A model generated the notes under the pieces. It was not told the DNA's origin, did no database searches, and was given only the letters and a program-made list of their open reading frames with translations. The position numbers and the translations under genes were made by a program. A stretch of 64,000 nucleotides of DNA from Candidatus Competibacter phosphatis (GTDB taxonomy: Bacteria; Pseudomonadota; Gammaproteobacteria; Competibacterales; Competibacteraceae). Within the stretch, counting starts at the first letter, position 1, and the number at the start of each line of letters is the position of its first letter. The DNA lies in the NCBI RefSeq assembly GCF_012939995.1, contig NZ_SPMZ01000036.1, positions 1 to 64,000 on the forward strand, read 5' to 3'. Positions 30,859 to 47,786 of the stretch are shown here, one piece after another.

Positions 30859-33800
30859 CTACCCACCGGCAACAGCCCGACTCACCGCCCGTCGTTCCAA
30901 CCGCCGCAAGCTCTTGAACGCGATAGCTCGAATCGCGCTGTCCTCGTCCTTGTTGGCCAGAATGCCTTGCAACGCGGTTTGCGCCGTTTCGCCGCCCAGC
31001 CGGCCCAAGGCCGCAATCGCGCTTGACCGCGCTGCTGCTTCACTGTTGATCGCCATGGCGCGTTGGATGAGCGTCGCCACCTCCCGCTGTTCCAGATAAA
31101 CCGGCAAGGCGGCTTGCCGCTGCTCGGCGCTGGCTAGCAAGCGGCCATCCGCCTTGGGCAGAACCGCCCGCAGGACTGGACGCAAGGCCGCGCCATCGAC
31201 GCTCTTGGTTCGCTCCAAATGCTGGAGTACGGGCTCGCCGCCCAGCCGGGCCAGAGCGGCGCTGGCCGCCGCACGCACCCCGGAATCGACATCCTCCAAG
31301 GCTTGCAACAGCAAGTTGCTGTCCTTGGCATTGCCGCACTCGGCCAGACAACGAATCGCTTCGCACCGTACCGCAACCGGATGACGAGGATCGGCGAGCG
31401 CAGCCCGCGCTGCGGGCGCGACGGCGAGTTGCAATTGACGGGCAGCCCACAGACTGGCCCGCCAGGCGTGCGCTTCCGCGCCAGCCTGTTCCCACAAATG
31501 CCGTTCGTCGGCCCGTCGCCAACCGTTCGCCGCCCGCTCCAGCGCGGCTTGCACCCCTGCCGCTAAATCTCGGTCGCCACTGTTGCCGGCGATCCAGGCC
31601 GCTTCGGCACGCGTCGCGGCTGCGTCGCTTTGCAGCAGATCGCGCAGCGCGTCGCCGGCGAAAGTCTGGCGGCGGATCAGCCCGCGCCGCAGCCGTTGGC
31701 GAACCTGTTGGTCCTTGACCACGCTCAGCCGCTGGGTCAAGGTGGCGGGGTCGCCCTGCCGGGCCAGGAAGCGGGCGGCAGGTTGGCTGATCTCGGCGTA
31801 TTCGCTGTTCAGAGCCAGCAGGTTGACCTGGGTAGCGTCGGTGGGATAAATCCGTCGTAGCGCCTCCAGACCGGCCTTGCGCAGACCGGCGTCGCGTTGG
31901 TGCAGTAGCGATTCCAGCACCGGTTCGGCGGTGACCGCGCCCAGTTCGCCCAATTCGATGGCGGCCCGCTGCCGGGTGGAGCCGTTTTCGTAAGGATCGC
32001 TGGCGAGGCGTTCCAGCAGGGCACGGCTGCGCTCGTCGCCGACGCGCCGCAAACCGCTCAGCGTCCGCCAGCGCAGTTCGCCCACACCCTCGCGCGCCAG
32101 TCGTTCCAGGTTATCGCGCACCCGCTGGCGTTCGTCGGCGTCGGTCAGTCGGGGCAGCAACGCACCGAGGGCTTCGGCGGCATCCGGGGCCAAGGCGCGG
32201 TCGTCAGCGGGCAAGTCGGCGCGTTGATCGAGCAACGGTTCCAGATATTCCAACGCGCGCCGGTCGCCCAACTCGCCCAGCGCGGCGATGGCGCGTTTGC
32301 GCTCCACCTCCGTGCCAGCCGTGAACGCCAGCAACAGCGGTTGGAAGGCTTCCGGTCGTTGCTGCTTGGCCAAACCTTCGGCGGCGGCCAGCAACAGTTC
32401 GCGGCGGCCGCCGATCAAGGCCCGCGTCAACGGTTCCAAACTCGCGCCCGGCATGCCAGCGACGATACGTTGCGCCAGTTGCGCGCAAGCCAGCGCCCGA
32501 ATCGCCTCGTCGCGGTCGTCCAGCAGCCGGACCAGCAGCGTTTCCGCCGGTTTCGCTTCCAGTACGCCCAAGACTTCGACGACGCGGGTCCGAATCGCAG
32601 CGTTGTCGTGATCGAGCAACGGCGGCAAGGTTTCCAAAGCCAATTCTTCCCGGTAACGCGGGTATTGCCGCCCGTCCGCGCGCTTTTGCTCCGGCTGGAT
32701 TCGGTCGCGCAACAATTGCAACAACACGTCCAAGGCTTGGCTGTGATAAGTGGCTTTGTCCTTGTCCAGCAACCAGCGGCCCAGCAGCGGTGCGGCGGCG
32801 ATGTGGCCGATGCGACCCAGGGCGCGCAGTAGAACCGGACGGTCGGCGGTCAGATCGGGATCGTCTTCCAGGCGCACGGTCACGGCCTCGACCGCCTTTG
32901 CCGCGACCTGTTCATTCGGTCGGGCGTGCGCCAAGACGACCAGCGCCTCCAACGCTCGGTTGGCGGTTCGCGCTTCGCCGTGCAGAGCAGCGGCCAATAC
33001 GTCCAGCGCCAGCGACTCGCCGCGTTGAGCCAAGCCTACGGCGGCGCGCAGGCGCAATTCCTCGTGCTCGCTTTCCAAGGCGCGGCTTAGAGCGGCGGCG
33101 ATGCGCGGATCGTTGGCATCGAGCAAGCGATCCACCACGGTCAGCCGCAGATCATCGTGACGGCTGTTCAAGGCCAGCAACCAGGGTTCCAGACTGCCGG
33201 TGGGATACAGGCGAGGCAGTTGCTCCAGCGCGTGGCGGCGCGTCTCCGCATTGGCGGCATCGACCGCGCCCCGGACCAGTTCGGCGGCGCGCGCATCGCC
33301 GGCTGCGGCCAAAGCCAGCAAACGGTCGAAGGCATTGCGGCCGAGGTCGGCGAAATCGACGTTCAAGGCCAGCGCCAGCGGCTCCAGCGGCTCGCGCGGA
33401 TGCAGTTCGGCCAGCGCGCTCAGCGCCGCCTGCCGCACTAGATGATGCGGGTCGCCCAAAGCTTGACGCAGCACCGGCAACACCGCTTCCCGGCCGATGG
33501 TGGGTTGCTGGGCCAACACCGCGAGACGGGCGATGCTGTCGCGCCGCACCCGTTGATAATCGTCCGGCCCCTTGGCGACCGGCGCTTGCCGAATCAGGCC
33601 GGCATACGTGCCGAACGCGAGCCGCCACAGTTCGGACGCGCTGGCTTGATCTTGCGCTTTGGGCGGTCGTCGCCCGCCACCGGCGAAGCGCAACACCGTC
33701 AGCAGGCGTTGGGTGGCGGAGTTGTTCGGCTGCGGCTTGCGCTGGAACAGACCGCGTATCCAGCCAGTCTTGCGCTCCAGCGGCGTTTCGGCTTCGGGCG

Positions 33801-36800
33801 CGGTTTGCGGTGGGGCCTGATCAGTGGCAATTTCGGCGAGACGCTTCGCCTCGCGCCAGAAGGTTTCCGGTTGCGGGCGCAGGCCGAGCACCTGGGCAGC
33901 GGCGTAGCGCCGGGCTGGGGAATCGCTGGCCAGGGCGTTGACCACGGCGTTGAGCAGACGCGGCCGTTGCGCCGGCTCCGGCCAATTGCGCATATCGCTG
34001 GCTTTCTCCGGCTGGCGCGGCCCGATCAGTTCCAGACCCCATTGCCCCAGGTCTTCGTCGCCCAACCGCGCTTCCAGCACGCGGGCGGCGGCATAGCGGA
34101 TTTCCGGCTGGCCGGCGCTCAGAGCGCTGAGCAGCAAATCCGGCTCCAGTTGCGCTCGCGCCAAGGCAATATCGCGGGCCACGATCACGGTGAAGGTTAA
34201 TTCCTGAAGATCGCGTTCGCGGTCTTCCAAGCCTTGCAGCAAGCCTTGGGCGCCAGCACCGCCCAGCGCGACGAAACTGTACAACGCGCCGCGCCGGATC
34301 GGCAGATGCTCGTGACGTTGGGTGCCGGCCAGCACCGGCAACGCCCGCGCATCGCCCAGCTTCGACAGGCCATCGGCGGCCCAACTGCGCACCGCCAGAT
34401 CGGCGTGAGCCAGGGCGGCGACCAGCGGTTGCTCGTTGCCATTTTGGCAGGCGGTGGCCAAACCCCGCGCGCCGTGTTCCCGCACCAGGGGATCGTCGTC
34501 TCGTAACAAGGTGGTGAAGAATGGAATGCTGGCCGAGTCGCCCACGTCGGCCAGGGCGCTAGCGGCGCGCTGGCGCAGCGCATCGGCGGGCCGGTCACGA
34601 TCGGTCTTGGGAATACTCAGCAACGCCTGCATCGGTCCGACGGCGCGGCTGTCCCGGCGCTTGCCGCACAATTCCCCGGCGCGCACCCGCAGCAGATAAA
34701 ACGGGCTGTCGAAGGCGAGGGCGAACGCTTGCGCGTCGTTGGGCAGCAGTTTGTCGAGCGCTTCGATGGCGGCGAGGAACTGAGGCGCTTCCTCGGTTTG
34801 CAACAGTTCGATCAAACGGTTCCGCAGCGGGGCCGGGTCGGTCGCTTCCAGCGCGCCTTTCGAACCGGCCAAGCGGACTTCGGCAGCGGGCGAATTGAGC
34901 GCCGCTAGATGGTAATTGGCGCGTTTCTTGTCGGCGTCTTCCTTGGTCAGAGCCTCGTAGGCGGCCAAGCCGACTTCGGCGGCGCTGTCGCCAACTCGTT
35001 CGATCAGCAATTCCCTGGCCCAGGCGCGCGACTGGCGGGCTTGGCGAGCCAGTTCGTCCACGGCCCAGCGGCGCACGTCGGGATGCACCGAGGCGACCGC
35101 CCGGCGCAGGGTGGTTTCCGGGCGCTTGCTGTGCCAGGCCCACAACGTCCGCATGGCTTCCCGGCGCACGTTCTCGGCTTCGTCGTCCAGAGCGTGGCCG
35201 AGTAACCCGTCGATGCGGGTGGCGAGTTTGTTTTGGGCAGTCGCACCGTGCTTGACCAGCAGTTGCAGGGCGCGGGTCCGAATTTCGCCCGCCTGCGTGC
35301 GTAGCGCCAGTTCAGCCAGATCGATCTCGCCGGCTGGGCCTTCCGGCTCGGCCAATTTGATCAGCCCGTCGAACGCTTCGGCACGGACTTGGGCGTCGTC
35401 GTCGTTCAACAGCCATTGCAGGCGCAAGCGCAAGCGCCGGTCGCCCGCCAGATTGATGATCGCGTTGGCCATGAAACGGGTGACCAGCCGCCGTGTCCCG
35501 GCTTCCAGTTCTCGGCTGAGTTGCAGCAAGGCGCCGCTGGCGCGGTCGTCGCCGAGCCAGCTCAGACACAGGACGCTTTGCAAGGCCATGTCCGGTTGAC
35601 GGCAAACCAGAGCGGTGAATAGCGGTTCTAGGTCCGATTCGGTCGGGGCTGTGCCGGTGGTGGTTGCCGCGCCTTCGATGCCGAGAGCGGCATATTCGTC
35701 CAGTATCTTGGCGATATCGGGGCCGCTGGCGCGCAGGTTGGCAACCAGCGCTGGGTGGACCGCGACCGCGATCCAAAAGGCCGCGTGACGGACCGCGAAC
35801 GTGTCGTCATTGATTGCCTGGCCGAGCAACTGGCGGCCCTGTGGCGTGGCATTCAATTGCCGTCGCCCCAGCCGGATCAAAACCGCGCGGCGGATATCAG
35901 CGGAACCGCGCTCGAACGCACCGCGCAGGGGTGCAACGCCGGCCTCAGGGTCCAGGGTCAGCAAACCATCGAGCGCGGCTTCGCGGACGTTGGCGTCCGA
36001 GTCGTTCAGCCGCTCGTTCAGCAGTCTCGGCACCAGGGGCGATGCTTGGCGCAATGCGGTCAGGCGTTGCACCGCATCGAGCCGAATGTCCGGGTGCCGG
36101 CTGCCCAGCGCCAGTTGCAGGGCGTGCAGGGGCGTTTCGGCGTCGATTTGCTCCAGCGCTTTCAGCGCGGCCTTGCGCACGCCGACATGGTCGTCGTTCA
36201 ACGCCTTGGCCAGTGTCGGTCGGCTGCGGCGGCGTTGGCTGACACCCAGCTTTTGCGCGGCTTCAATGCGTTGCCCCGGCCGGGAGTCCTGACCGAGCAC
36301 GTATTCCAAACCTTCCCGCGCCTCGTCCTCGGCCAGTTGCGCCAAAGCGTCCAGGGTGGCCGAGGAGGAGCGGTTCGCCTTAACCTCGTCGAGCAGTCGT
36401 TGCAGTCGGGAGTCCCAGGTTTCGGCGCTACCGGATGGATTGCCGTTTTGATCGACCGGACTGAGCCAAATCAACCGATTTTCCGTGACCGCGACCAGCA
36501 AGCCGCCGCGCTGTTCCGGTTTGGCCTGTTGCAGTGGTTCGAACAGCGCCAGTGCGCTGGCGTTGCGTCCGACGGGGATAGTGCGCGGCTTGCGGCGCTG
36601 ATCCAGCGTCCAGACCTTGAGTTCGCCGTCCTCGCCGAGCGAGAACAAGCGGCGGGGAAGGGGACGGCCCTGCTCGTCATTCAGTGCCGCGCTGAATAAT
36701 AGGCCGCGCACTGGACCCTGATGGGCGGCATCGCCGCTGCGATTTTCTTCGTCGATGGCCCCTTCCAGGAAGCAGACCCGGATTGAACCATCGCCGCAGC

Positions 36801-37413
36801 CGGCGACGATCCGCCCGTCGCCGGTGAAAGCCAAGGCAAAAATGCCACGCTCGCCGCAGGGCATGACACGGGGTTCGGCGTCGCTCAGTTGGGCCAGCGG
36901 CAGAACGTAAATGGTGTTATCGGCGCCAGCGGCAGCGACGCTGCCACTCGCTGGGTCCAGCGCGACGGCGCGTAGCGGCTGTTCGCTCAAATGGCGCTTG
37001 GCTTGCTCGCGCAGGCGCGGCCGGTCGCCGTCCATCTCAAGGGTGTGCAGTGCTAGCACGCCGTCATCGCCGATGCTCAAAACCTGCGAGTCGGACGTAA
37101 CCAGCGCCCGCACCGCGCCGGTGTGAACAGCCTGCTGCCAATCCGGGGTTTTGCCTTCGCCGCTGGTGCGCCAAATGGCCAAATCGCCCTTGACGGTTCC
37201 AGCCAGCAATAGATCATCGTTGCAAAAGGCCAGCGCGGTTGCAACGGCGTCCAGCGGGGCGCTGAATCGCAAGTTCAGCTTGGGCAATTGCAGCAGATGA
37301 ATGCCGGAGTCGGTGACACCCACCGCATCGCGGCGACCGCCGACCGCAAGGAGTTTGCCGCTGGCGGCGACGGCTAATAAGCGTTCGATGTGGGGCGCGT
37401 ATTGTTTAGCCAC
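30859..37413 (-). CDS. giant WD40 plus HEAT-repeat protein
   Basis: A 2184-residue protein from GTG at 37413, which has AAGGAG 9 bases upstream; an upstream ATG at 37449 lacks this. Residues 1-330 form a WD40/beta-propeller-like region with short repeats ending in phrases such as LAGTVKGDLAIWR, IVAGCGDGSIRVCF and SLGEDGELKVWTLD. From about 370 to the end it is a long solenoid of HEAT/PBS-lyase repeats, e.g. DDHVGVRKAALKALEQI, NDSDANVREAALDGLLTL and HHLVRQAALSALAEL. No catalytic motif, signal peptide or membrane helix is visible. It looks like a sensor or scaffold. A second HEAT protein and a retron lie upstream on the same strand beyond a toxin-antitoxin/DUF262 block, so it may be a separated member of that system. 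Confidence 0.85.
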   Translation of the reverse strand: MAKQYAPHIERLLAVAASGKLLAVGGRRDAVGVTDSGIHLLQLPKLNLRFSAPLDAVATALAFCNDDLLLAGTVKGDLAIWRTSGEGKTPDWQQAVHTGAVRALVTSDSQVLSIGDDGVLALHTLEMDGDRPRLREQAKRHLSEQPLRAVALDPASGSVAAAGADNTIYVLPLAQLSDAEPRVMPCGERGIFALAFTGDGRIVAGCGDGSIRVCFLEGAIDEENRSGDAAHQGPVRGLLFSAALNDEQGRPLPRRLFSLGEDGELKVWTLDQRRKPRTIPVGRNASALALFEPLQQAKPEQRGGLLVAVTENRLIWLSPVDQNGNPSGSAETWDSRLQRLLDEVKANRSSSATLDALAQLAEDEAREGLEYVLGQDSRPGQRIEAAQKLGVSQRRRSRPTLAKALNDDHVGVRKAALKALEQIDAETPLHALQLALGSRHPDIRLDAVQRLTALRQASPLVPRLLNERLNDSDANVREAALDGLLTLDPEAGVAPLRGAFERGSADIRRAVLIRLGRRQLNATPQGRQLLGQAINDDTFAVRHAAFWIAVAVHPALVANLRASGPDIAKILDEYAALGIEGAATTTGTAPTESDLEPLFTALVCRQPDMALQSVLCLSWLGDDRASGALLQLSRELEAGTRRLVTRFMANAIINLAGDRRLRLRLQWLLNDDDAQVRAEAFDGLIKLAEPEGPAGEIDLAELALRTQAGEIRTRALQLLVKHGATAQNKLATRIDGLLGHALDDEAENVRREAMRTLWAWHSKRPETTLRRAVASVHPDVRRWAVDELARQARQSRAWARELLIERVGDSAAEVGLAAYEALTKEDADKKRANYHLAALNSPAAEVRLAGSKGALEATDPAPLRNRLIELLQTEEAPQFLAAIEALDKLLPNDAQAFALAFDSPFYLLRVRAGELCGKRRDSRAVGPMQALLSIPKTDRDRPADALRQRAASALADVGDSASIPFFTTLLRDDDPLVREHGARGLATACQNGNEQPLVAALAHADLAVRSWAADGLSKLGDARALPVLAGTQRHEHLPIRRGALYSFVALGGAGAQGLLQGLEDRERDLQELTFTVIVARDIALARAQLEPDLLLSALSAGQPEIRYAAARVLEARLGDEDLGQWGLELIGPRQPEKASDMRNWPEPAQRPRLLNAVVNALASDSPARRYAAAQVLGLRPQPETFWREAKRLAEIATDQAPPQTAPEAETPLERKTGWIRGLFQRKPQPNNSATQRLLTVLRFAGGGRRPPKAQDQASASELWRLAFGTYAGLIRQAPVAKGPDDYQRVRRDSIARLAVLAQQPTIGREAVLPVLRQALGDPHHLVRQAALSALAELHPREPLEPLALALNVDFADLGRNAFDRLLALAAAGDARAAELVRGAVDAANAETRRHALEQLPRLYPTGSLEPWLLALNSRHDDLRLTVVDRLLDANDPRIAAALSRALESEHEELRLRAAVGLAQRGESLALDVLAAALHGEARTANRALEALVVLAHARPNEQVAAKAVEAVTVRLEDDPDLTADRPVLLRALGRIGHIAAAPLLGRWLLDKDKATYHSQALDVLLQLLRDRIQPEQKRADGRQYPRYREELALETLPPLLDHDNAAIRTRVVEVLGVLEAKPAETLLVRLLDDRDEAIRALACAQLAQRIVAGMPGASLEPLTRALIGGRRELLLAAAEGLAKQQRPEAFQPLLLAFTAGTEVERKRAIAALGELGDRRALEYLEPLLDQRADLPADDRALAPDAAEALGALLPRLTDADERQRVRDNLERLAREGVGELRWRTLSGLRRVGDERSRALLERLASDPYENGSTRQRAAIELGELGAVTAEPVLESLLHQRDAGLRKAGLEALRRIYPTDATQVNLLALNSEYAEISQPAARFLARQGDPATLTQRLSVVKDQQVRQRLRRGLIRRQTFAGDALRDLLQSDAAATRAEAAWIAGNSGDRDLAAGVQAALERAANGWRRADERHLWEQAGAEAHAWRASLWAARQLQLAVAPAARAALADPRHPVAVRCEAIRCLAECGNAKDSNLLLQALEDVDSGVRAAASAALARLGGEPVLQHLERTKSVDGAALRPVLRAVLPKADGRLLASAEQRQAALPVYLEQREVATLIQRAMAINSEAAARSSAIAALGRLGGETAQTALQGILANKDEDSAIRAIAFKSLRRLERRAVSRAVAGG

Positions 37414-37531
37414 GGCGTGCGGCTCCTTGGAAAATTTACAAACTAACAAAAGGTCGTATTGGAGAAAATCGTTTTAGACTTGATTTTTCTTCAGCATACA
37501 TGCCTAGCCAGCAAGCTATTGGATCGTTTAT

Positions 37532-39224
37532 TTACTCCGCAACTGTTCCATCCTCTTCATAATCATCCTTTAGTTTTGATTGTAAGCTTTTGTCTACATC
37601 CTGCTTAATGATTCTTTTTTTCAAGCTCGGTACTTATTCGATCTACACGGTTCTGGAAGAACAAATCATAATTATCATTCCATACACCAAATTTATCTAG
37701 ATCGTCAATAAAATGAGATTTCATGGTGTCGGAGAGTATTGCATTTGTTTTTTTTGAATTTCTTCATGTATTTTTGATGGAGGTTTTGCGCCAATTTTCT
37801 CTTTTATTGAGAAAATCATCTACAATTGTTATATTTAGTATGTGATTAATGTAGGATTCTTCTATATTGCGATTTCTCAAATATGCTCTTGGGAAAAAAG
37901 TGATGATAATTTTTTGCTGTTAGCCTGTTTTTAACCAATAATTACTTATATTAACGATGGAATCATCCACGAACGATTTTGGTTGCTGATAAGCGTAAAT
38001 ACATAGAATTGCCTTTATATAACTTCGGCCAGCGCTAAACCATCCATTCTCAATTATGAAATTGGGAGATGTGTCGATTGGCCAGTCATATGAAGGCAAT
38101 TTTTCAAGTAAAATATCATCTATTCTTTTGATGTCTTGAGCCAATTTGCTCTCTACAGCAGAAGAATACCGTCCTGACAAAGAGCAACGCCAAAAGAAAT
38201 CCTGTAGATATTTCTGCTTATTGCCAGTAGGCTTATCTTTGTTTTTGAAGAAAAAAATATGAAAATGGGACTATCAATGCATTGTATGGCAATAATTGCG
38301 AGACGGGTATTCGGTAAAAATTTCTAAAATATTCAACTGTTCGTTCTATTGCATCTATCGCTTCATCCCATATTGATATAAATTCATTTTTATCTAACTT
38401 GAGAATTACCTGTCTTTTGCACTCACCAGCTATGATCATTGAAATCGTTTGTAATACAGTTGCATCTGGTACGGTTTCATAGTCGAATGGTTTAAGGTTA
38501 TCAATCAACTGCTGATATTTTTTCTGAAAGATCAAAATTCTTCTCAAAGTCGAATGTTTTTTGCGACCATTATTTCAAACAAAAGAGAGCGGCTTGCCGC
38601 CAACATTAATTCTAGTGAAAATCTCTGTTGCAATATCTATTTCAGCGTCTTTAATCTGAATAATTGGGTATTGATAGCTTTCAATTCTGCTTTTTATACA
38701 ATTTTCAGTTTTTTCATGATACTTTTTGTGGATAAGAAGCGAGTACAGTAAAATCACCTGTCAATAGGTCAAGAACAGTTATATATGTTTTTTTCATCTT
38801 CTGTTTCTTTTTTTTTCAGCAGAAACTATCTGTTCGTTTTCTTCAGATTCAAGATTGATAAATATTTTTGAGAAATCATCAAATGATTTTCCGTTCTCTC
38901 TGTTTAGGCAAATACCTTTTAAGCAAGCAAATAGGCTTGTTAGTCTTTGTTGTCCATCAAGGACATAATCTATTGCCTCACCCTTTTCAGGATCGGGTAG
39001 TTTTTTGATTGCCTATGTTTCTAACTGAACGCAGTCTTTCTTTAGTCCTCCAAAATATAAATGTCCCAATTGGGTAACCTTTCAATATACTATCAATTAA
39101 TCCAGCCGATTTTTGAACTGTCCATACAAAATCCCTTTGGAATTGAGGTATTTTGATTTGTCCTTTTTTCAATTTCAGAAATAAGGCTTGAGAAAGTTCT
39201 TGTTTGAGGTTCTGGTAATTTCAT
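37532..39224 (-). CDS. DUF262 (GmrSD-like) protein broken by many frameshifts
   Basis: An AT-rich gene of about 560 codons, readable only by changing frame several times. It starts MKLPEPQTRTFSSLISEIEK, and with A5 instead of A6 at 39164-39169 continues into GQIKIPQFQRDFVW, SILKGYPIGTFIFWRT and DYVLDGQQRLTSLFACLKG, the ParB-like DUF262 core. The C-terminal half contains EIFTRINVGGKPLSF and ends DDYEEDGTVAE at the TAA 37532-37534. DUF262 proteins act in DNA defence (GmrS-like NTPase/nuclease of modified-DNA restriction; BrxU). Each break seen lies in or near an A or T run, so it could be intact in the cell. Otherwise it is a pseudogene. Confidence 0.65.
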
Positions 39225-39255
39225 TATATTTTCCTTTAAATTATTTCTGTGAAAC

Positions 39256-39492
39256 CTAATCTTGGTATGAGGTTAGAATTAAAAAAACTATATTAATATA
39301 TTCTACCTGACTAGAAGGTTCTGGAATCGGTAAGCCATCCTCTCGCATACCATGTAAATGCAATTGGATAGCCTCCTGAATTTGCGTTTCTACTTCTTCA
39401 AGAGTTTGGCCAGTCACTATACAACCAGGAAGATCGGGGATATAGTCCGCATAATTTCGTTCCGCTTTTTCGATTAATACCGCATAACGCAT
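39256..39492 (-). CDS. HicB-family antitoxin, solitary
   Basis: A 78-residue protein with the HicB partial RNase-H-like fold: MRYAVLIEKAERNYADYIPD, LPGCIVTGQTLEEVETQIQE, AIQLHLHGMREDGLPIPEPS. The last dozen residues (after SSQVEYI) look foreign. There is no C-terminal DNA-binding domain. No hicA-like partner adjoins it directly; the next upstream gene is a complete hicAB unit. It may be an orphan antitoxin or a leftover of a second module. Confidence 0.8.
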   Translation of the reverse strand: MRYAVLIEKAERNYADYIPDLPGCIVTGQTLEEVETQIQEAIQLHLHGMREDGLPIPEPSSQVEYINIVFLILTSYQD

Positions 39493-39527
39493 GGGAAAAC
39501 CTCATCACTTTTTCATACCTGTTCGCT

Positions 39528-39953
39528 TCAAGCCACTTCCCGCATAGGCCGAATCCGTGGTGGCGGTAATTCTCGGCCTTCCTTGACGAAATGCTGAATC
39601 ACATCCTCTATGACTTCACATAGCTCGCTATAAAGCTGTGTCGGGCTATCGCCATGAATTCCTGTGATTAAATCTGGACATTTACCGACATAGGTTTGAT
39701 CTTCTTCGCTCCATTCAATCCACTTATGGTACTGGTCGCTTACTTTCATTTTTTTCACGCTCTCTATCGCCTGATTGACTTGCTTTTCTTGGTAATGTTT
39801 TGCGTCATCTCCGGATTGGCCGCTGACGGTTACCGCACCGGCATATTTGGAATGAATGAATTTTCGATGCGAACCTTTGCCGCCACCTACTATTTCACTG
39901 AATCCGGCGTCTTTCAAATTCTGAATCAGATCTCTAATTTTCTTCGGCATCAT
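39528..39953 (-). CDS. hicAB: HicA toxin and HicB antitoxin, fused in this sequence
   Basis: Residues 1-65 are a HicA double-stranded-RNA-binding-type mRNA interferase (MPKKIRDLIQNLKDAGFSE, then GGKGSHRKFIHSKYAGAVT with the catalytic histidine). Residues from 69 are a HicB antitoxin (MKVSDQYHKWIEWSEEDQTY, GKCPDLITGIHGDSPTQLY). They are joined in frame by VKK. The joint contains an A7 run (T7 at 39749-39755 on the plus strand). With A6 the toxin would end VKK-TGA and the antitoxin would start at the overlapping ATGA, the usual hicAB arrangement. I therefore think these are two coupled genes made to look fused by one extra base. Confidence 0.8.
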   Translation of the reverse strand: MMPKKIRDLIQNLKDAGFSEIVGGGKGSHRKFIHSKYAGAVTVSGQSGDDAKHYQEKQVNQAIESVKKMKVSDQYHKWIEWSEEDQTYVGKCPDLITGIHGDSPTQLYSELCEVIEDVIQHFVKEGRELPPPRIRPMREVA

Positions 39954-40023
39954 GCATTGCTTATGAGCTCACTGTATGCTTGGCCTCCACAAGAGAAGCG
40001 TGTTGGCTTGGAGGCATATATCC

Positions 40024-40551
40024 CTATAACTTCCCTGCGGCCACGAGCGCCGCTTGGAGAGTGGCGAGTGGAAGAAGGAGCGAAAGCGGTTGATCGACAA
40101 GAGGCGCCGCGCCGTAACGTTCGTACCAGCGAGCGACCGAAGCACTCTTGGCATCGATGAGCAGGGCGACGCCCCCAACTTCGCTGGCGGCGAGGAGACA
40201 GCGCCGGCCGGCCAAGAGCAATAGTTGCCCGCCCAATCCATGGCCCTGCCAGGCGCGGGCGACCGCCAGTCGCCCGAGACGAAACACCGGCACGTCATAG
40301 CGGGCGAGTCCCCGTCGGATCATCTCCGGCGTGCGCGCGTAGGCCACCGAAGCGGGGCTCAGGCTGTAGAAGCCGAGCACGCTGTTCACTTCGGCATCGG
40401 CGACCGCCAGAAAGGTCTTGGCGCCGCCCCGTTCGTGGCTCTTGCGGGCATGGTGGCGCAGAAAGTCGTTCAAGGCGGGTTCGCCGCAATCAAACCTTTC
40501 CCGGTCATGATGCCTGCCGATCGATTCTTCGTGCCACGGCGGCAGGGTCAT
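40024..40551 (-). CDS. tacT: TacT-like GNAT acetyltransferase toxin
   Basis: A 175-residue GNAT N-acetyltransferase of the toxin class that acetylates charged tRNA. Family features: opening FDCGEPALNDFLRHHARKSH, GFYSLSPASVAY, RLGRLAVARAWQGHGLGGQL (acetyl-CoA-binding pyrophosphate loop Q/R-x-x-G-x-G/A) and the catalytic-tyrosine region SVARWYERYGAAPLVDQP near the C-terminus. It overlaps the upstream DUF1778 antitoxin gene by 4 bases, the standard TacAT order. Confidence 0.9.
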   Translation of the reverse strand: MTLPPWHEESIGRHHDRERFDCGEPALNDFLRHHARKSHERGGAKTFLAVADAEVNSVLGFYSLSPASVAYARTPEMIRRGLARYDVPVFRLGRLAVARAWQGHGLGGQLLLLAGRRCLLAASEVGGVALLIDAKSASVARWYERYGAAPLVDQPLSLLLPLATLQAALVAAGKL

Positions 40552-40841
40552 GAGGGGTTTGGCAGGGCTTCCGCCGCCGCGAGCAGCCGGGCGTTGGGCG
40601 CCGGCGGCTGTTCCAGGACCGCGAGCACCCGCAGGCTGTCCCGCTCGGACAGTGGCACGCGCTCGGCCTGCTCGATCACGGTTTTCGCCGCCTGCAACGC
40701 CGTGCGGATCACGAAATCGGTGAGATCGGTGTTTTCCAGGGCCACCGCCCGCATCAGCACGGCTTTGTCTTGAGCGCGAATCCGCAAGGATAGACGACTG
40801 TTGTCTTCAACCATCACTCTCGGCATGGCTTTCTCCGGCAT
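40548..40841 (-). CDS. tacA: TacA-like DUF1778 antitoxin
   Basis: A 97-residue ribbon-helix-helix antitoxin (DUF1778). RLSLRIRAQDKAVLMRAVAL forms the DNA-binding N-terminus, with NTDLTDFVIRTALQAA following. The tail LSERDSLRVLAVLEQPPAPN is the segment that usually wraps the GNAT toxin. The ATG at 40841 or the one at 40826 could be the start. As a type II module it probably represses its own promoter. Confidence 0.88.
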   Translation of the reverse strand: MPEKAMPRVMVEDNSRLSLRIRAQDKAVLMRAVALENTDLTDFVIRTALQAAKTVIEQAERVPLSERDSLRVLAVLEQPPAPNARLLAAAEALPNPS

Positions 40842-40903
40842 AGTACTGTTTCAAAGCGTACGAAAATTCCGCTCAAAGAGGAAGCGACATTCCCAGGAAG
40901 CAG

Positions 40904-40960
40904 GTCGCACAGCTTGTGCGACATTGTCGGGCTCGAATTCGTGCCACAGCTTGCGGCACG
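40904..40960. repeat. two adjacent palindromes with a shared AGCTTG loop
   Basis: GTCGCACA-GCT-TGTGCGAC (40904-40922) is a perfect 8-bp stem. CGTGCC and GGCACG (40940-40945 and 40955-40960) form a second stem 17 bases later. Both enclose an AGCTTG-like core. They lie between tacA and the stop of the HEAT-repeat gene. They could be REP-like elements or a terminator for the retron operon, though no T tract follows on either strand. Confidence 0.45.
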
Positions 40961-40996
40961 AAGAGGCTTGGTCGAAAAAATGAAATAGTCTGTCCC

Positions 40997-43879
40997 TCAC
41001 GCTGTCCTTGCCCTCAGATTCACCTGTCCCACTGGCAAATCCACTCGAATCGCCGGATGTACCCGCCGAATTTGCACTAGCGCGGCGACGCAATGTTGCC
41101 ATTCATTCTTGGCGCGAGAATGGCGGAATTCCGCCAGCACCGGTGTCACCAACTCCGCGAAACCGGCATCGCTCAGGGCTAGCGTTTTGATGGCTTCAAT
41201 CAACCGACGTTTGCCGACGCTGGCTGGCCACGGCCGTTCGGGCGCGGCTTGGTTGGTGTCCAACTCGCGCCGTTCCATCCGACCGGGCGGTAGGCCAAAC
41301 AAAGTCTTGCGCAGAAATCGACGCAATCCTTCGACTGGAGTGCTGGGCTGGGGCTCGGTGGCCTTCGCGGTCGGCACGAATTTCCGGCGCTGACGTTCCC
41401 ACAATAGGCGAACGGTGAACAGCCCAACCTCGCGGTGCGGGCTTTCCATCAGCCAGGCCAGCCGCGCCGGATCGCTGAGTTGCTCCTGATGGCGACGGAT
41501 CAGGGTCAGCGCCGTTTCGCGGGTGATCTTGTGGCGGCTTTCGGCCAACTGAAACACCCGTTCCGGCAACAGCCATTCGACCGGCAGGGCCGGTTCCATC
41601 GAGCTTTCCCCTAAGTGCAACAACTGTTCGATGGCAAAGGCACGGGGTTCACGGTGTTCGCTGTCGGCCAGTCGATAGAGGAGGGCCGGCTCGTTCCAGG
41701 CGCGCAATTCCTCCCGCGCGATGGCGACCGCCAGCCGGCGCAGATCAGGCCGTTGATCGGCAAACAGCGGCCGCAGCCGGCTCGACGGATAATCGGCGGC
41801 GGTCAAGCCGGGTTGGATATTGAAGGCGCGCGTTTCGGGATCGCTGGGGCCGATTTTCGGATGATGGGCCTTGAGATAGGCGGCGGCGAAGTGGCGCACC
41901 GGTTCCGGTTGGGTGGGGCCGCAGGCCAGTTCCCACAGGTGATCGATTCCGCTGCGCTCGCCGCTGGCGAAATCGTCGGGCCGGAAGGATTCCAATAGAT
42001 AGCGGTGGGCGAAAGCGTGCAGGGTCGAATCGGCCTGCCGCGCCATCGCCAGCAGCCAGGGCAGCCCGACGCGGCTCGGTGCGACCAGCTCCGAATCGCC
42101 GAGCAACTGGAGCGCGAGCAGGCGCAGCGCCGGACGCATGGCGAGGCCTTTGAGCCACTCGACATCCAAATCCTCGCCTTTGAATTTACCCTGCCGCAAC
42201 CAACCGGCCACGGCATCGCTCAGATGAGGATTCAATAAGGCTTGCTGCATCCAATCCGAGCCGATCTCGCGTCCCGAATAACCCGCTAGTGTTTTAAGCA
42301 CTCGCTGGCGGGCAATGGCGGTACAACGTGGATCGTCCAATACCTGACGGTAGTAAGCAGCGGGGACCGTAACCTTTGCGTCCCGATAGAATTCGAGTAC
42401 GGCATCGAGAGCGGAAGCGCCCCCTCGTTGGGAAAGATTATTGAGGATGCGCTCGAAATCGGCATTTTGAACGCCTTGTTGAATGAGCCCCATGATGTGT
42501 TGTATTTGACGTTCGACAGTGGCGTTTTGCGAACCGGAAGGGGCGAGGGCTACTTCGACGAACTGTTCGGCGGTGATGTCCTGGGGCCGGAAACCTTGCT
42601 GCAATTTGGCCTTGGCGAGAGCGGCGCTGGCTGGCACCGTCAATAATATGAGCAGGGTCGGCAAGCCCAGTTCGGCCGGTTTCCGTTGTTCGAGCAGGGC
42701 GATGGCAAAGGTCCGCGCGTCCTGTGCGCCTTCCCGCACCAGCTTGACCAGTTCGGCGACGGGCAGGTCGGTGGCGTAGGCGCGGGCGTAGTCGATGGCG
42801 TAGCGGCGGGCCGGGCTGTTGCCGCTGTACAGCAATCCCAACACCATGTCGTGCAAGCCGAGTTGCTTCAGTTTCGATTGGTGGAACTCGGGATTGTCGC
42901 GCAGTAGTTTGATGATGAAGTCGTGCACGATGTCCAGCCGCTTGGCGCCGAGGCGGGCCAGCCAAGCCGGTTCGACATGGCGCAGGGTGTCCTTGAAGTC
43001 CTGCTCCAGCCCGCGAATGGCGAATTCGCAGACTTGCGGGTTTTGGGCATCCTCCAGCAACCGCAACAGCGGCGCGGGACTGATTTTCCAGGCATCGTCG
43101 AAGGCGCGATGCTCCAGTTTGGCCGGCAGACCGCTGCTGCCCAATAGACCTTGATCGGTAGCGCCGATCAGGTCCTTGTGTCGCCAAATCTGATTGGCGA
43201 TCCAGCAGTGGCGGAAGTTGCACTGAGACGGGTAGTGACGCAAGACTTGGCCAGCGTACACCGGAAACAACTCCGGCAGGACTTGACCGAGTTGCCGCAG
43301 ATAGCGCCAAGCGCGACGACGCATGTACAACCAGGTGCCGCGCGAAATGTCTCCTTCGCCCAGTTTGGCTTGGTCGTCCAGGCGATAGCACAGAACGCCC
43401 AGCATGGCGAGGTCGTGGTGCTGTTCGGCCTGCTTGTAAATGCCCTTGATACCTTGCCAGATGCCCCAACCGATGGCGTTTGGCGGCAGTTGGGGAATCA
43501 GTTCCAACAGCAGGGCACGGGCCGGTTCGTCGTCGGCCGTATATAAATCCAGCAACAGTTGGCCTAAGCGCAGGCGCGGCGGCGGGTTGGGCGAGGCCAG
43601 CAGCGCGGCCCAGGCGCCGGTGCGCGTCGCTTGACGTTCATCATCGGTTTTGCCGGCCAAGGCTTGCGGGTTCAGACTTTGGCGCAAGCGATCCAACGAC
43701 CAGGCATCGGGCGGCAAAGGTTGGGCCTGATAGTCGTCCGGCGGGTCTTCCGGCTGGCCGGCGGGCGGGTCGGGCTGCGCGAGAAATTCCAGAATCCACG
43801 GGACGAATTGTGGATCGCGCCGGGCGGCGGCGTATTCCAGATCGGTGAACAGAATGGAGCGGTCGTCGGCCATGAGCAT
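40997..43879 (-). CDS. HEAT/ARM-repeat protein of the retron locus
   Basis: A 960-residue soluble protein (958 if it starts at the second ATG at 43873). It opens DDRSILFTDLEYAAARRDPQ and is helical throughout. HEAT-like repeats are clearest in the second half, for example LRRLAVAIAREELRAWNEPA, HREPRAFAIEQLLHLGESS and HKITRETALTLIRRHQ. No enzymatic motif, membrane helix or signal peptide is visible. It starts 3 bases after the stop of the WGR gene, and WGR overlaps the reverse transcriptase, so the three are one translationally tight operon. In the retron class I know as type XIII an ARM-repeat protein accompanies the RT; this is the obvious candidate. Its repeat style resembles the giant WD40-HEAT protein downstream. 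Confidence 0.85.
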   Translation of the reverse strand: MLMADDRSILFTDLEYAAARRDPQFVPWILEFLAQPDPPAGQPEDPPDDYQAQPLPPDAWSLDRLRQSLNPQALAGKTDDERQATRTGAWAALLASPNPPPRLRLGQLLLDLYTADDEPARALLLELIPQLPPNAIGWGIWQGIKGIYKQAEQHHDLAMLGVLCYRLDDQAKLGEGDISRGTWLYMRRRAWRYLRQLGQVLPELFPVYAGQVLRHYPSQCNFRHCWIANQIWRHKDLIGATDQGLLGSSGLPAKLEHRAFDDAWKISPAPLLRLLEDAQNPQVCEFAIRGLEQDFKDTLRHVEPAWLARLGAKRLDIVHDFIIKLLRDNPEFHQSKLKQLGLHDMVLGLLYSGNSPARRYAIDYARAYATDLPVAELVKLVREGAQDARTFAIALLEQRKPAELGLPTLLILLTVPASAALAKAKLQQGFRPQDITAEQFVEVALAPSGSQNATVERQIQHIMGLIQQGVQNADFERILNNLSQRGGASALDAVLEFYRDAKVTVPAAYYRQVLDDPRCTAIARQRVLKTLAGYSGREIGSDWMQQALLNPHLSDAVAGWLRQGKFKGEDLDVEWLKGLAMRPALRLLALQLLGDSELVAPSRVGLPWLLAMARQADSTLHAFAHRYLLESFRPDDFASGERSGIDHLWELACGPTQPEPVRHFAAAYLKAHHPKIGPSDPETRAFNIQPGLTAADYPSSRLRPLFADQRPDLRRLAVAIAREELRAWNEPALLYRLADSEHREPRAFAIEQLLHLGESSMEPALPVEWLLPERVFQLAESRHKITRETALTLIRRHQEQLSDPARLAWLMESPHREVGLFTVRLLWERQRRKFVPTAKATEPQPSTPVEGLRRFLRKTLFGLPPGRMERRELDTNQAAPERPWPASVGKRRLIEAIKTLALSDAGFAELVTPVLAEFRHSRAKNEWQHCVAALVQIRRVHPAIRVDLPVGQVNLRARTA

Positions 43880-43882
43880 CGC

Positions 43883-44341
43883 CTATTGAGGCCGGTAGCC
43901 TTCGGCTTCCAAGGCCGCCCGGACTTGGGCAAAGGCGGCTTCGGCGGCGGAGGGGTCGGGGTAGTGTTCCACGCCGTGAGTGTGCAGCGCGTTGCCTTCC
44001 ACGCTCAGGCGCAGTTCCAGGCGACGTTCGCCCAACATCAGAACCAGCGTGCATTGCGAGGGGGCGGGGGCGGTGGACGATGGTTCGGTGACAGCGGATG
44101 ACGCAACCGTTTCGCTTGGACCGCCGTCGCCGTCCACGTAGCCTTTCTTGTATTTTTCCCGCGCCTGTTTTTCCAGTTCCCGCGCCGCATCTTCCGGCGA
44201 ATCGTAGCGTTTGGCTTGACTTTGCCCCTGGCTACCGATCCGGCCGAAATTGACTTCCAAGTTGTTGCCGATACAGCGCGCACGCCAGAACTTGTTGGAT
44301 TTGCTGTCCTGAAAGATCAGGGAAACTTGCCACTCACTCAT
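43883..44341 (-). CDS. WGR-domain protein of the retron locus
   Basis: A 152-residue protein. Residues 1-75 are a WGR domain: FQDSKSNKFWRARCIGNNLE, then VNFGRIGSQGQ in place of the canonical W-G-R, and YDSPEDAARELEKQAREKYK. WGR domains bind nucleic acid ends in PARPs and occur alone in bacterial conflict and repair loci. After a Ser/Thr-rich linker, residues 95-152 form a second small domain (LVLMLGERRLELRLSVEG to ALEAEGYRPQ) that I do not recognise. The ATG at 44341 lies inside the last codons of the RT gene (8-base overlap), so translation is coupled. It could present the retron msDNA or its ends to the HEAT protein; this is inference. Confidence 0.88.
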   Translation of the reverse strand: MSEWQVSLIFQDSKSNKFWRARCIGNNLEVNFGRIGSQGQSQAKRYDSPEDAARELEKQAREKYKKGYVDGDGGPSETVASSAVTEPSSTAPAPSQCTLVLMLGERRLELRLSVEGNALHTHGVEHYPDPSAAEAAFAQVRAALEAEGYRPQ

Positions 44342-45636
44342 CCGTGCCACGCTCCTCCAGTTGTTTGAGTTGCGCCAGAAACGGTTTGGCCCGCTCCGGG
44401 TCGGTCATGTGCAGAAAGGCGACCCAGCCCCGCAGTTGCGCCAGACTTTCACCTTCCTTACCGGGTTTGCCGTTCAACCGATTGTGCAGAGCGGCGCGCA
44501 GGCGTCGAACCTGGGCGCGCGGCACTCGCGCCGGACTGCCAGACGGCGTTTCGTTAACCACCAGACCCGTCACGGTTTGCCGGCGGCCTCGGCGCAGAAT
44601 CCGGGTTTTTTCCGGGTGGGGGACAAAGCCTTCGGCCTTGAGAATCATGCGAACGCAACGCAACAAGCGACCCAGCGGCGGTGGTTCTGCCTCGTGCCAG
44701 GAAAAGGTCAGATCGTCGGCGTAACGGGTGTAGCGGAATCCCAGTTTTTGGCTCAGGCCGGACAGGCGGCAATCCAACCGCAGGCAAACGGTGTTACTGA
44801 GGGCGGGACTGGTCGGCGCACCTTGCGGCAGGGCGCGCGGCCCGCTGGCGACATGGACATGCTGGCCGTCGAGTGGCAGCAGTTCACGCGGTGCTTCGGT
44901 ACAGAGCAGAGCCAGCACGGTGGCGACCTGTTCGCCGTAGCCGCCCTTACGGAATAGGCCCTTGACCCGCCGCCAAGTCACGGTGGGATAGAAATGGCGG
45001 ATGTCGAGTTTGACGATGGTGTATGCGCCAGCGTGGACGGCGGCATTGCTGAAGATGCTGCGTCCGGGTAGGAAGCCGTGCGCGGCGCCGTGCACCGGCA
45101 GGCGTTCGGCAATCTGGCGCAAGATCCAGCGTTGAGTCTTTTTTCAGCGTCGGCTTGGGCGCGCTGATCAGGCGGGCGCCGCCGTCGCGTTTGGGGATGG
45201 TCCAATATTGATAGTGGCTGCCGCTGTCCACTTCGCGGTGGAACGCCAGCCAACGCAAACGGGGAATGGACAAATCGAGCGCCTTGGCGAGGGCTTGGGC
45301 GTCCTTGATTTCCGGCAGGGCATTGGTTTCGCGCCGGGTTTCGGGATCAGGCAGGTCGTAGCGGTCTTGGTCTGGCGTGTCGTGATGGAACACGTCCGCG
45401 CCGAGGTGGACCAGATGGGCTTGGCGGAAAGCGGTCCACGCTTGCTGGCGCAACTGCTTGCGGACTCGCCGCTCTTCTTCCCGTCGCGCTTTGTACTGGT
45501 GGAGGGCGGCGCCGGTCAGCTTGGCGGGGTCGGTCGCCTCGTCCAACAGACCCAATTGTCGTAGCCGGGCGACGACCCAGCGTTCGATATCGCCGACTTG
45601 GGCGATGTCTTCCCAGGTGGGGGGTGTCTCGCTCAT
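44334..45636 (-). CDS. retron reverse transcriptase, frameshift at an A6 run
   Basis: About 433 residues after joining two frames. An N-terminal extension of some 110 residues precedes the RT core. Core motifs: YWTIPKRDGGARLISAPKP, FLPGRSIFSNAAVHAG (the retron-specific NAxxH), catalytic A motif VKLDIRHFYPTVTW, B motif LPQGAPTSPALSN, C motif YTRYADDLTFSW and VTGLVVNE (the retron VTG). The frame breaks in the A6 run (T6 on the plus strand, 45139-45144). A5 joins PTLKK to TQRWILRQIAERLPVHGAAH, restoring a normal finger region. It should copy the msd part of the RNA encoded just upstream, priming from the 2'-OH of the msr branch guanosine. Its stop overlaps WGR. Confidence 0.92.
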
Positions 45637-45652
45637 GCCGTTTTCCAGACCG

Positions 45653-45680
45653 AGCGTAAGGATTGCTGGAGCGTGAGGCG
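45653..45680 (-). repeat. retron a2 arm (3' end of msd)
   Basis: The partner of the a1 arm, placed 16 bases upstream of the RT start codon. Complementarity stops abruptly at both edges, which defines the element boundaries well. Confidence 0.82.
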
Positions 45681-45707
45681 CAAACCGCTACTTCTCACAA
45701 GGGACAC

Positions 45708-45835
45708 GGTAGGCTCACCGGCCAGCCGCCGGTAACCGTCCCTAGTTGTTGGCGGAAACCGCGGTGGCGTGGTTGGCCCAGCTCCGCCAACAACTAGGGA
45801 CGGTTACCGGCGAAGCTGGCCAAGAACAGCCTACC
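45708..45835 (-). repeat. long msd hairpin with a perfect 29-bp core stem
   Basis: Arms 45728-45756 and 45783-45811 are perfect 29-base inverted repeats around a 26-base loop (45757-45782). The stem extends outward as two further paired blocks: GGCCAGC (45720-45726) with GCTGGCC (45815-45821), and GGTAGGCT (45708-45715) with AGCCTACC (45828-45835), separated by small bulges. The stem is too long and lacks a T tract for an ordinary terminator. It is the expected template hairpin for msDNA. Confidence 0.85.
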
Positions 45836-45900
45836 TTGTGGCGTGTGTGGCGTTGGAATTCCCGGACGGCGCAACGCCGCCCAAACGGCTAATGGAGGAA

Positions 45901-45928
45901 CGCCTCACGCTCCAGCAATCATTACGCT
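45901..45928 (-). repeat. retron a1 arm (5' end of msr)
   Basis: A 28-base sequence complementary to 45653-45680, with a single mismatch at the eighth base. Pairing of the two arms closes the msr-msd RNA and positions the branch G for priming. Confidence 0.82.
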
Positions 45929-45929
45929 A

Positions 45930-45952
45930 CGGACTTTTCGCTCCCTTGTCAA
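45930..45952 (-). promoter_or_regulatory. candidate promoter of the retron RNA
   Basis: A perfect TTGACA (45952 to 45947 on the minus strand) is followed after 17 bases by TAGCGT, a weak -10 box that overlaps the beginning of a1. A start of transcription would then fall inside or just before the a1 arm, as retrons require. The -10 match is poor, so confidence is low. Confidence 0.4.
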
Positions 45953-45986
45953 AGGTTGTCGTTAGTTATGAAACGGTTATATCAGG

Positions 45987-47786
<1,800 letters not shown>

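What the first reader, a model, noticed from the sequence alone, without database searches (positions are those of the whole stretch)
40997..47786. Complete retron locus with SWIM, RT, WGR and HEAT/ARM genes
Seen: an RT with NAxxH, YADD and VTG motifs, an msr-msd-like element in front of it, a WGR protein overlapping the RT by 8 bases, a 960-residue HEAT protein 3 bases later, and a SWIM zinc-finger protein upstream. Known: retrons are anti-phage systems built from RT, msDNA and an effector; a class I remember as type XIII pairs the RT with an ARM protein and a WH-SWIM protein. Inference: this is a type XIII-like retron in which a WGR subunit is a fixed member. No component has an obvious toxin or nuclease domain, so the effector mechanism would be new.
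Basis: partly seen in the sequence, partly recalled or inferred. Interest (0 to 1): 0.92.

Follow-up and report, generated by a model that had tools for sequence, protein, structure and literature searches.

The report
Retron with a clamp-shaped partner protein
This is a retron (a bacterial, probably anti-virus, reverse-transcriptase system) of the known type XIII, in a little-described five-gene form; one of its proteins is predicted to fold like PCNA, the ring that slides along DNA during replication, which gives a concrete lead on how this retron type might act.

Summary
RT, SWIM, WGR and HEAT genes and an msr-msd element are present and score as retron type XIII (PADLOC RT_XIII, SWIM_XIII, HEAT-ARM_XIII). 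But the RT frame is broken by one extra A (45139-45144); 12 relatives have an open frame. And the locus is incomplete as drawn: a 2.2-kresidue WD40-HEAT protein (30859-37413) belongs to it. In the genome's order, all 13 genomes with this RT carry that protein (16 of 40 do). WGR is not new here: in most type XIII loci it is the N-terminal domain of the HEAT protein; this lineage has it split off. The RT tree puts the window's lineage as sister to canonical type XIII, with its own ncRNA (msd stem strongly covarying). New lead: the SWIM protein, modelled from 44 relatives, contains a PCNA/sliding-clamp fold (Z 16.3, 211 of 245 residues, 2.6 A), then a winged helix and the SWIM finger; sequence similarity to PCNA is not significant. 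No nuclease or toxin domain was found. Best guess: an msDNA-held complex of clamp-like, WGR and HEAT proteins that acts on replicating DNA when phage disturbs the msDNA; that step is inference.

The parts
45987..47786 (-). SWIM_XIII protein, 599 aa from ATG 47786 (an upstream frame opens to 48074)
   Evidence: PADLOC SWIM_XIII E=3.9e-144; relatives align only from about residue 97 of the long frame = 47786
46800..47678 (-). PCNA / sliding-clamp-like domain of the SWIM protein (residues 133-425 of the 695-codon frame)
   Evidence: AlphaFold model; Foldseek E 2.4e-9; VIA Z 16.3, rmsd 2.6 A, 211 aligned, target 245; viral library hits PCNAs and beta clamps
46575..46754 (-). winged-helix-like domain of the SWIM protein (residues 441-500)
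   Evidence: HHHEE order in the model; weak Pfam winged-helix hits in several members
46281..46364 (-). SWIM zinc finger
   Evidence: Pfam SWIM 18.1 bits, just under the cut-off 19.6; 43 of 44 family members match; C577 C579 C592 H594 invariant
45924..45952 (-). conserved promoter-like element of the ncRNA: TTGACA-17-TAGCGT
   Evidence: conserved in the aligned relatives of A2
45661..45920 (-). retron ncRNA (msr-msd): a1 45901-45920, TTAGC region 45886-45894, msr hairpin 45864-45882, msd stem 45720-45821, a2 45661-45680
   Evidence: fold z=-11.7; 15 covarying pairs, 99.6% of cells paired, 0/500 shuffles; coordinates
44334..45636 (-). reverse transcriptase gene, split into N frame 44947-45636 and C frame 44334-45122
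   Evidence: RT_XIII E=1.4e-33 (N) and 2.8e-109 (C); tree
45139..45144 (-). A6 run: one extra A relative to the closest relatives, breaks the RT frame
43883..44341 (-). WGR protein, 152 aa
   Evidence: Pfam WGR E=2.7e-16; separate frame in 12 relatives
40997..43879 (-). HEAT/ARM solenoid protein, 960 aa
   Evidence: HEAT-ARM_XIII E=2.3e-251 and WGR_XIII E=6.3e-38; all-helical model
   Evidence: PADLOC HEAT-ARM_XIII PDLC02919, 1236 bits; Pfam HEAT_2 x14 and WD40; linked or co-occurring in every RT+ genome of the order

Best explanation
A type XIII retron of a separate lineage with five proteins (clamp-WH-SWIM, RT, WGR, HEAT, WD40-HEAT) and a divergent msr-msd RNA. Shown: gene set, synteny, ncRNA structure, RT placement, and (as a prediction) a PCNA-like fold in the SWIM protein. 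Inferred: the RT makes msDNA whose long, fully paired hairpin is held by the proteins; the clamp-like SWIM protein and the WGR domain (a DNA-end-binding fold in PARP proteins) are the DNA-contacting parts, and the two HEAT proteins are the scaffold. When phage nucleases, SSB or replication proteins disturb the msDNA, the assembly is freed and binds replicating DNA or replisome partners, blocking replication and stopping the infected cell. In this genome copy the RT frame is broken, so it is either inactive or mis-assembled.
For: Type XIII identity. Operon unit: 13 of 40 genomes of the order have the RT, all 13 have the WD40-HEAT gene, 16 have it in all (hypergeometric 4.7e-8, relatedness not corrected); blocks 30.85-37.4 kb and 41.0-47.8 kb are shared between genera whose flanks are not. 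ncRNA. Clamp fold; the conserved core of SWIM_XIII lies in it, with conserved Arg on its helices R145, R294, R325, R377, R379, R385. A second family has the same subunits (bar WGR) in one tight operon, HEAT with a BRCT domain.
Against: No clamp loader or polymerase is in the operon; sequence comparison with PCNA is not significant (no Pfam PCNA hit; hhalign E=0.33), so homology is unproven. Ring formation, DNA binding, msDNA and anti-phage effect are untested. Basic residues on the helices are only mildly enriched. The step after msDNA disturbance is a guess by analogy with other retrons. The RT of this copy is frameshifted.
Confidence: 0.35

Rival explanations
1. Type XIII retron in which the HEAT and/or giant WD40-HEAT protein is the toxic effector (for instance by grabbing a host complex), and the SWIM protein is only its DNA- or msDNA-binding inhibitor.
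For: Most retrons have a distinct effector held by RT-msDNA (own knowledge; also abstract of PMC12548924); the HEAT proteins are the largest, most divergent subunits (canonical members share 14-20% identity with the window HEAT) and HEAT solenoids bind partners.
Against: No enzymatic domain found in them; the clamp fold in the SWIM protein is then unexplained.
Confidence: 0.3
2. The clamp fold is real, but it serves as a sensor: the SWIM protein mimics or monitors the phage replication clamp or its loader, and another subunit does the killing.
For: PCNA-type clamps and processivity factors are among the viral-library matches; a winged helix and zinc finger follow the clamp.
Against: No co-variation with phage clamp type can be tested here; bacterial hosts use the different DnaN clamp.
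Confidence: 0.2
3. The PCNA match is a modelling artefact or a generic beta-alpha fold and says nothing about function.
For: One model, mean pLDDT 68.9 over the whole chain, no significant sequence match.
Against: pLDDT is mostly 80-96 over 210-420; all 50 listed Foldseek and VIA matches are PCNAs with Z 15.4-16.3 over 208-221 residues, well above the Z 7-8 typical of models without a clear match; a second library gives clamps of several different sequence families.
Confidence: 0.12
4. In this organism the locus is a decaying retron: the RT frameshift is real and the proteins remain only transiently.
For: One extra A in the run at 45139-45144 splits the RT.
Against: All other genes are open; closest relatives are intact; a homopolymer error in a draft assembly of 121 contigs is as likely.
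Confidence: 0.3

Closest known systems
Retron type XIII (PADLOC RT_XIII, SWIM_XIII, HEAT-ARM_XIII, WGR_XIII; Mestre et al. 2020, recalled, the paper is not in the library)
   Same: RT clade, SWIM protein, HEAT/ARM protein, WGR domain, ncRNA next to the RT
   Different: Here WGR is a separate gene, order is SWIM-ncRNA-RT-WGR-HEAT-WD40-HEAT instead of WGR-HEAT-SWIM-ncRNA-RT, an extra 2.2-kresidue WD40-HEAT subunit, and an ncRNA that the canonical profile does not match
G074/G305 loci (L038, L234, L040), another family of the same class
   Same: sister RT lineage (100/99), giant WD40-HEAT gene, SWIM with the C-terminal extension, ncRNA motifs CACAAGG..CTGTT and GAGCTGG shared
   Different: order ncRNA-HEAT-WD40-HEAT-SWIM-RT; HEAT carries a BRCT domain and no WGR gene was seen
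PCNA / DNA sliding clamps
   Same: predicted fold over 211 of 245 residues
   Different: no significant sequence similarity; about 50-residue helical insert (157-207); fused to winged helix and SWIM finger; no loader in the operon
WGR domain of PARP1-3 and MolR-type proteins (own knowledge)
   Same: WGR domain by Pfam
   Different: no ADP-ribosyltransferase domain; small stand-alone protein

Membership tests
Retron (general) | RT of the retron clade, not group II intron or DGR | tested here: met
   Careful tree: type XIII clade 93/87 apart from four group-II-like RTs (100/100); group II model scores 39 bits against a cut-off of 300
Retron (general) | msr-msd RNA with a1/a2 inverted repeats and TTAGC priming region | tested here: met
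Retron (general) | msDNA is made; phage defence | not testable with these tools
   bench work
Retron type XIII | RT_XIII | tested here: met
   364 bits against 262 for the next model; frame broken in this copy
Retron type XIII | SWIM (WH-SWIM) partner | tested here: met
   SWIM_XIII E=3.9e-144
Retron type XIII | HEAT/ARM partner | tested here: met
   HEAT-ARM_XIII E=2.3e-251
Retron type XIII, canonical lineage | WGR fused to HEAT, order WGR-HEAT-SWIM-ncRNA-RT, canonical ncRNA | tested here: not met
   WGR separate, other order; canonical ncRNA profile finds 69 loci but not the window lineage
PCNA-type sliding clamp | two-domain clamp fold | tested here: met
   predicted model only: Z 16.3, 2.6 A, 211 aligned
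PCNA-type sliding clamp | sequence homology to PCNA | tested here: inconclusive
   no Pfam PCNA hit among the families listed for 44 members; hhalign E=0.33, though in the register of the fold
PCNA-type sliding clamp | basic residues on channel helices | tested here: inconclusive
   R145, R294, R325, R377, R379, R385 conserved; mild enrichment
PCNA-type sliding clamp | ring assembly around DNA | not testable with these tools
   needs structure or biochemistry

The most novel reading that the evidence does not exclude
Type XIII retrons carry their own PCNA-like sliding clamp: a clamp-winged-helix-SWIM protein that encircles or caps the msDNA duplex and, once released by phage activity, loads on or jams replicating DNA with WGR and HEAT partners, a retron effector class that works by clamp mimicry rather than by an enzyme.
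Probability: 0.3. Interest if true: 0.9.

Novelty: new variant of a known kind. Interest (0 to 1): 0.6.

Why it matters
How type XIII retrons work was not found described in the papers searched, and no toxin domain is visible. A clamp fold in their most conserved accessory protein turns 'unknown effector' into a testable question about replication, and applies to the dozens of genomes across Cyanobacteriota, Bacteroidota, Pseudomonadota, Planctomycetota and Acidobacteriota that carry the family. The five-gene lineage also shows that the system tolerates splitting, fusion and reordering of subunits while keeping the ncRNA and the clamp-SWIM protein.

Tried and rejected
Group II intron or DGR origin: rejected by the tree (a first, rougher tree with mis-picked frames was replaced). 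Programmed frameshift in the RT: rejected, the frame is open in 12 relatives and the A6 frame shift is private to this copy. WGR as the new feature: rejected, it is the canonical N-terminal domain of the HEAT partner. Hidden enzyme in the HEAT protein: Foldseek and VIA give only HEAT/ARM solenoids, Z about 10, in the range of chance for repeats; Pfam and NCBIfam give none. A WGR-like domain in the SWIM C-terminus (residues 620-695), seen by eye: no Pfam hit, low pLDDT, left open. Rfam match for the ncRNA: only chance microRNA-like hairpins below gathering scores. Viral carriers of type XIII: only distant retron RTs in viral contigs and phages. The giant WD40-HEAT model finds no further member in 398 genomes drawn from the phylum at E 1e-150. 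Literature: no paper on type XIII mechanism, and none that links retrons with PCNA in this sense, was found; Mestre 2020 is not held.

Full report
What is there. PADLOC models of retron type XIII fit all but the small WGR protein: SWIM_XIII E=3.9e-144, RT_XIII E=2.8e-109 on the C-terminal frame, HEAT-ARM_XIII E=2.3e-251; the WGR protein matches Pfam WGR at E=2.7e-16. This is far beyond chance.

The RT is not intact. At the run of six A at 45139-45144 the frame changes: residues 1-165 lie in one frame, the rest, with SNAAVH, YADD and VTG, in another; reading the run one base shorter gives a continuous protein up to the palm. The nearest relatives have five A at the site, and 12 relatives have one open RT frame of 428-498 codons. 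So it is a private lesion or an error of a draft assembly (121 contigs), not a programmed frameshift.

The system is larger than reported. A 2.2-kresidue protein at 30859-37413, WD40 propeller plus HEAT solenoid, matches another PADLOC HEAT-ARM_XIII model with 1236 bits. In 40 genomes of the order, 13 have the RT and 16 the giant protein; every RT-positive genome has it, and the three others with it alone are draft genomes of 58-82% completeness. In seven relatives it lies 0.7-1.8 kb behind HEAT. The stretches 30.85-37.4 kb and 41.0-47.8 kb are shared between genera, while the outer flanks are shared mainly within the genus, so these five genes and the RNA behave as one transferable unit. In the window the gap behind HEAT is widened to 3.5 kb by TacA-GNAT and HicA-like genes; the same gap holds other small cassettes in relatives.

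Comparison with other type XIII loci. A scan of one genome per species gave 80 named loci from many phyla. Of 87 loci examined (with the window and six), 59 hold RT, SWIM, WGR and HEAT; usually WGR is the N-terminal domain of a HEAT protein of about 1050 residues, and the order is WGR-HEAT, SWIM, ncRNA, RT. WGR as a fixed partner is therefore a trait of type XIII in general. The window lineage has WGR split off in all 12 relatives. In a careful tree the type XIII RTs form a clade (93/87) that divides into the canonical group (81/93) and the window lineage with two RTs of another family, G074 and G305 (100/99); group-II-like RTs stand apart (100/100). G074 and G305 have a tight operon HEAT (with BRCT), WD40-HEAT, SWIM, RT, with the ncRNA in front of HEAT.

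The ncRNA. The window element folds with z=-11.7, has a perfect 20-nt a1/a2 pair, a TTAGC near a1 and a conserved TTGACA-17-TAGCGT in front. Over ten sequences 99.6% of pair cells are standard; 15 pairs of the msd stem change on both sides (37 cells), more than any of 500 shuffles or slid versions. Motifs of it recur in G074 and G305. Rfam has no match.

The SWIM protein. Folded with 44 relatives, residues 133-425 give a domain that is mostly confident (pLDDT mostly 80-96 from 210 on). Its matches in the PDB are PCNAs: Foldseek E 2.4e-9; VIA Z 16.3, 2.6 A over 211 residues of a 245-residue chain, and all 50 rows shown are PCNAs. Predicted viral structures give PCNAs, beta clamps and a herpesvirus protein of the processivity-factor kind. 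A winged helix (441-500) and the SWIM finger follow; Cys577, Cys579, Cys592 and His594 are invariant, and most invariant columns lie in the clamp region in canonical members too, so the domain belongs to SWIM_XIII as a whole. By sequence the link is not significant: no Pfam PCNA hit, hhalign E=0.33 although in the register that the fold predicts. Arginines conserved in nearly all members sit on the four putative channel helices, a mild enrichment. The HEAT protein is an all-helical solenoid without a catalytic domain in the model.

Mechanism. Shown: the gene set, its linkage, the RNA structure, the RT clade. Predicted: the clamp fold. Inferred from retron biology and from what WGR, BRCT, SWIM and HEAT domains do elsewhere (own knowledge): RT-msDNA holds the clamp-like, WGR and HEAT proteins in an inactive complex; phage activity that alters msDNA frees them to act on replicating DNA. 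I give this mechanism 0.35; the type XIII assignment about 0.97 and the clamp fold about 0.85. Rivals are a HEAT or WD40-HEAT toxin, or a clamp used as a sensor of phage replication.

Novelty. The retron type and all its parts have database models, so this is a new variant of a known kind. The clamp fold, for which no report was found in the held papers, is the surprising part and makes the effector question of type XIII testable.

Noticed in passing
L063:8940-9881; also L054, L094, L114: Tandem copies of the type XIII ncRNA between SWIM and RT: four copies at 253-257-base spacing in an Acidobacteria MAG, two in three others, with conserved msr and differing msd stems.
   Followed up: partly
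L052, L055, L065, L072, L075, L076, L083, L091, L095, L101: Type XIII-related RTs, mostly in cyanobacteria, with no SWIM or HEAT gene seen within about 10 kb where the contig allows; in L083 an ncRNA lies 5 kb in front of the RT.
   Followed up: no
window 37450-40990; L222, L226, L228-L231, L233: Gap between HEAT and WD40-HEAT genes is a cassette site: TacA-GNAT and HicA-like in the window (Pfam); by eye HicAB-like, excalibur-like, PIN-antitoxin-like and TIR-like genes in relatives.
   Followed up: partly
L221, L225, L223: Small extra genes inserted between SWIM and the ncRNA in three relatives, widening that gap to about 840 bases or more.
   Followed up: no
L040:10732-13998, L234:5042-8242: BRCT domain inside the HEAT protein of the sister lineage (Pfam E 4.9e-5 and 7.6e-4); with WGR this recalls PARP1's accessory domains.
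   Followed up: no
G000 contigs C78 (L001) and C90 (L002): Two further WGR-domain frames of about 107 codons in the window's own genome, on other contigs.
   Followed up: no
window 45987-46280 (SWIM C-terminus): Extra C-terminal 90 residues in the window lineage look WGR-like by eye but have no Pfam hit and low model confidence.
   Followed up: partly
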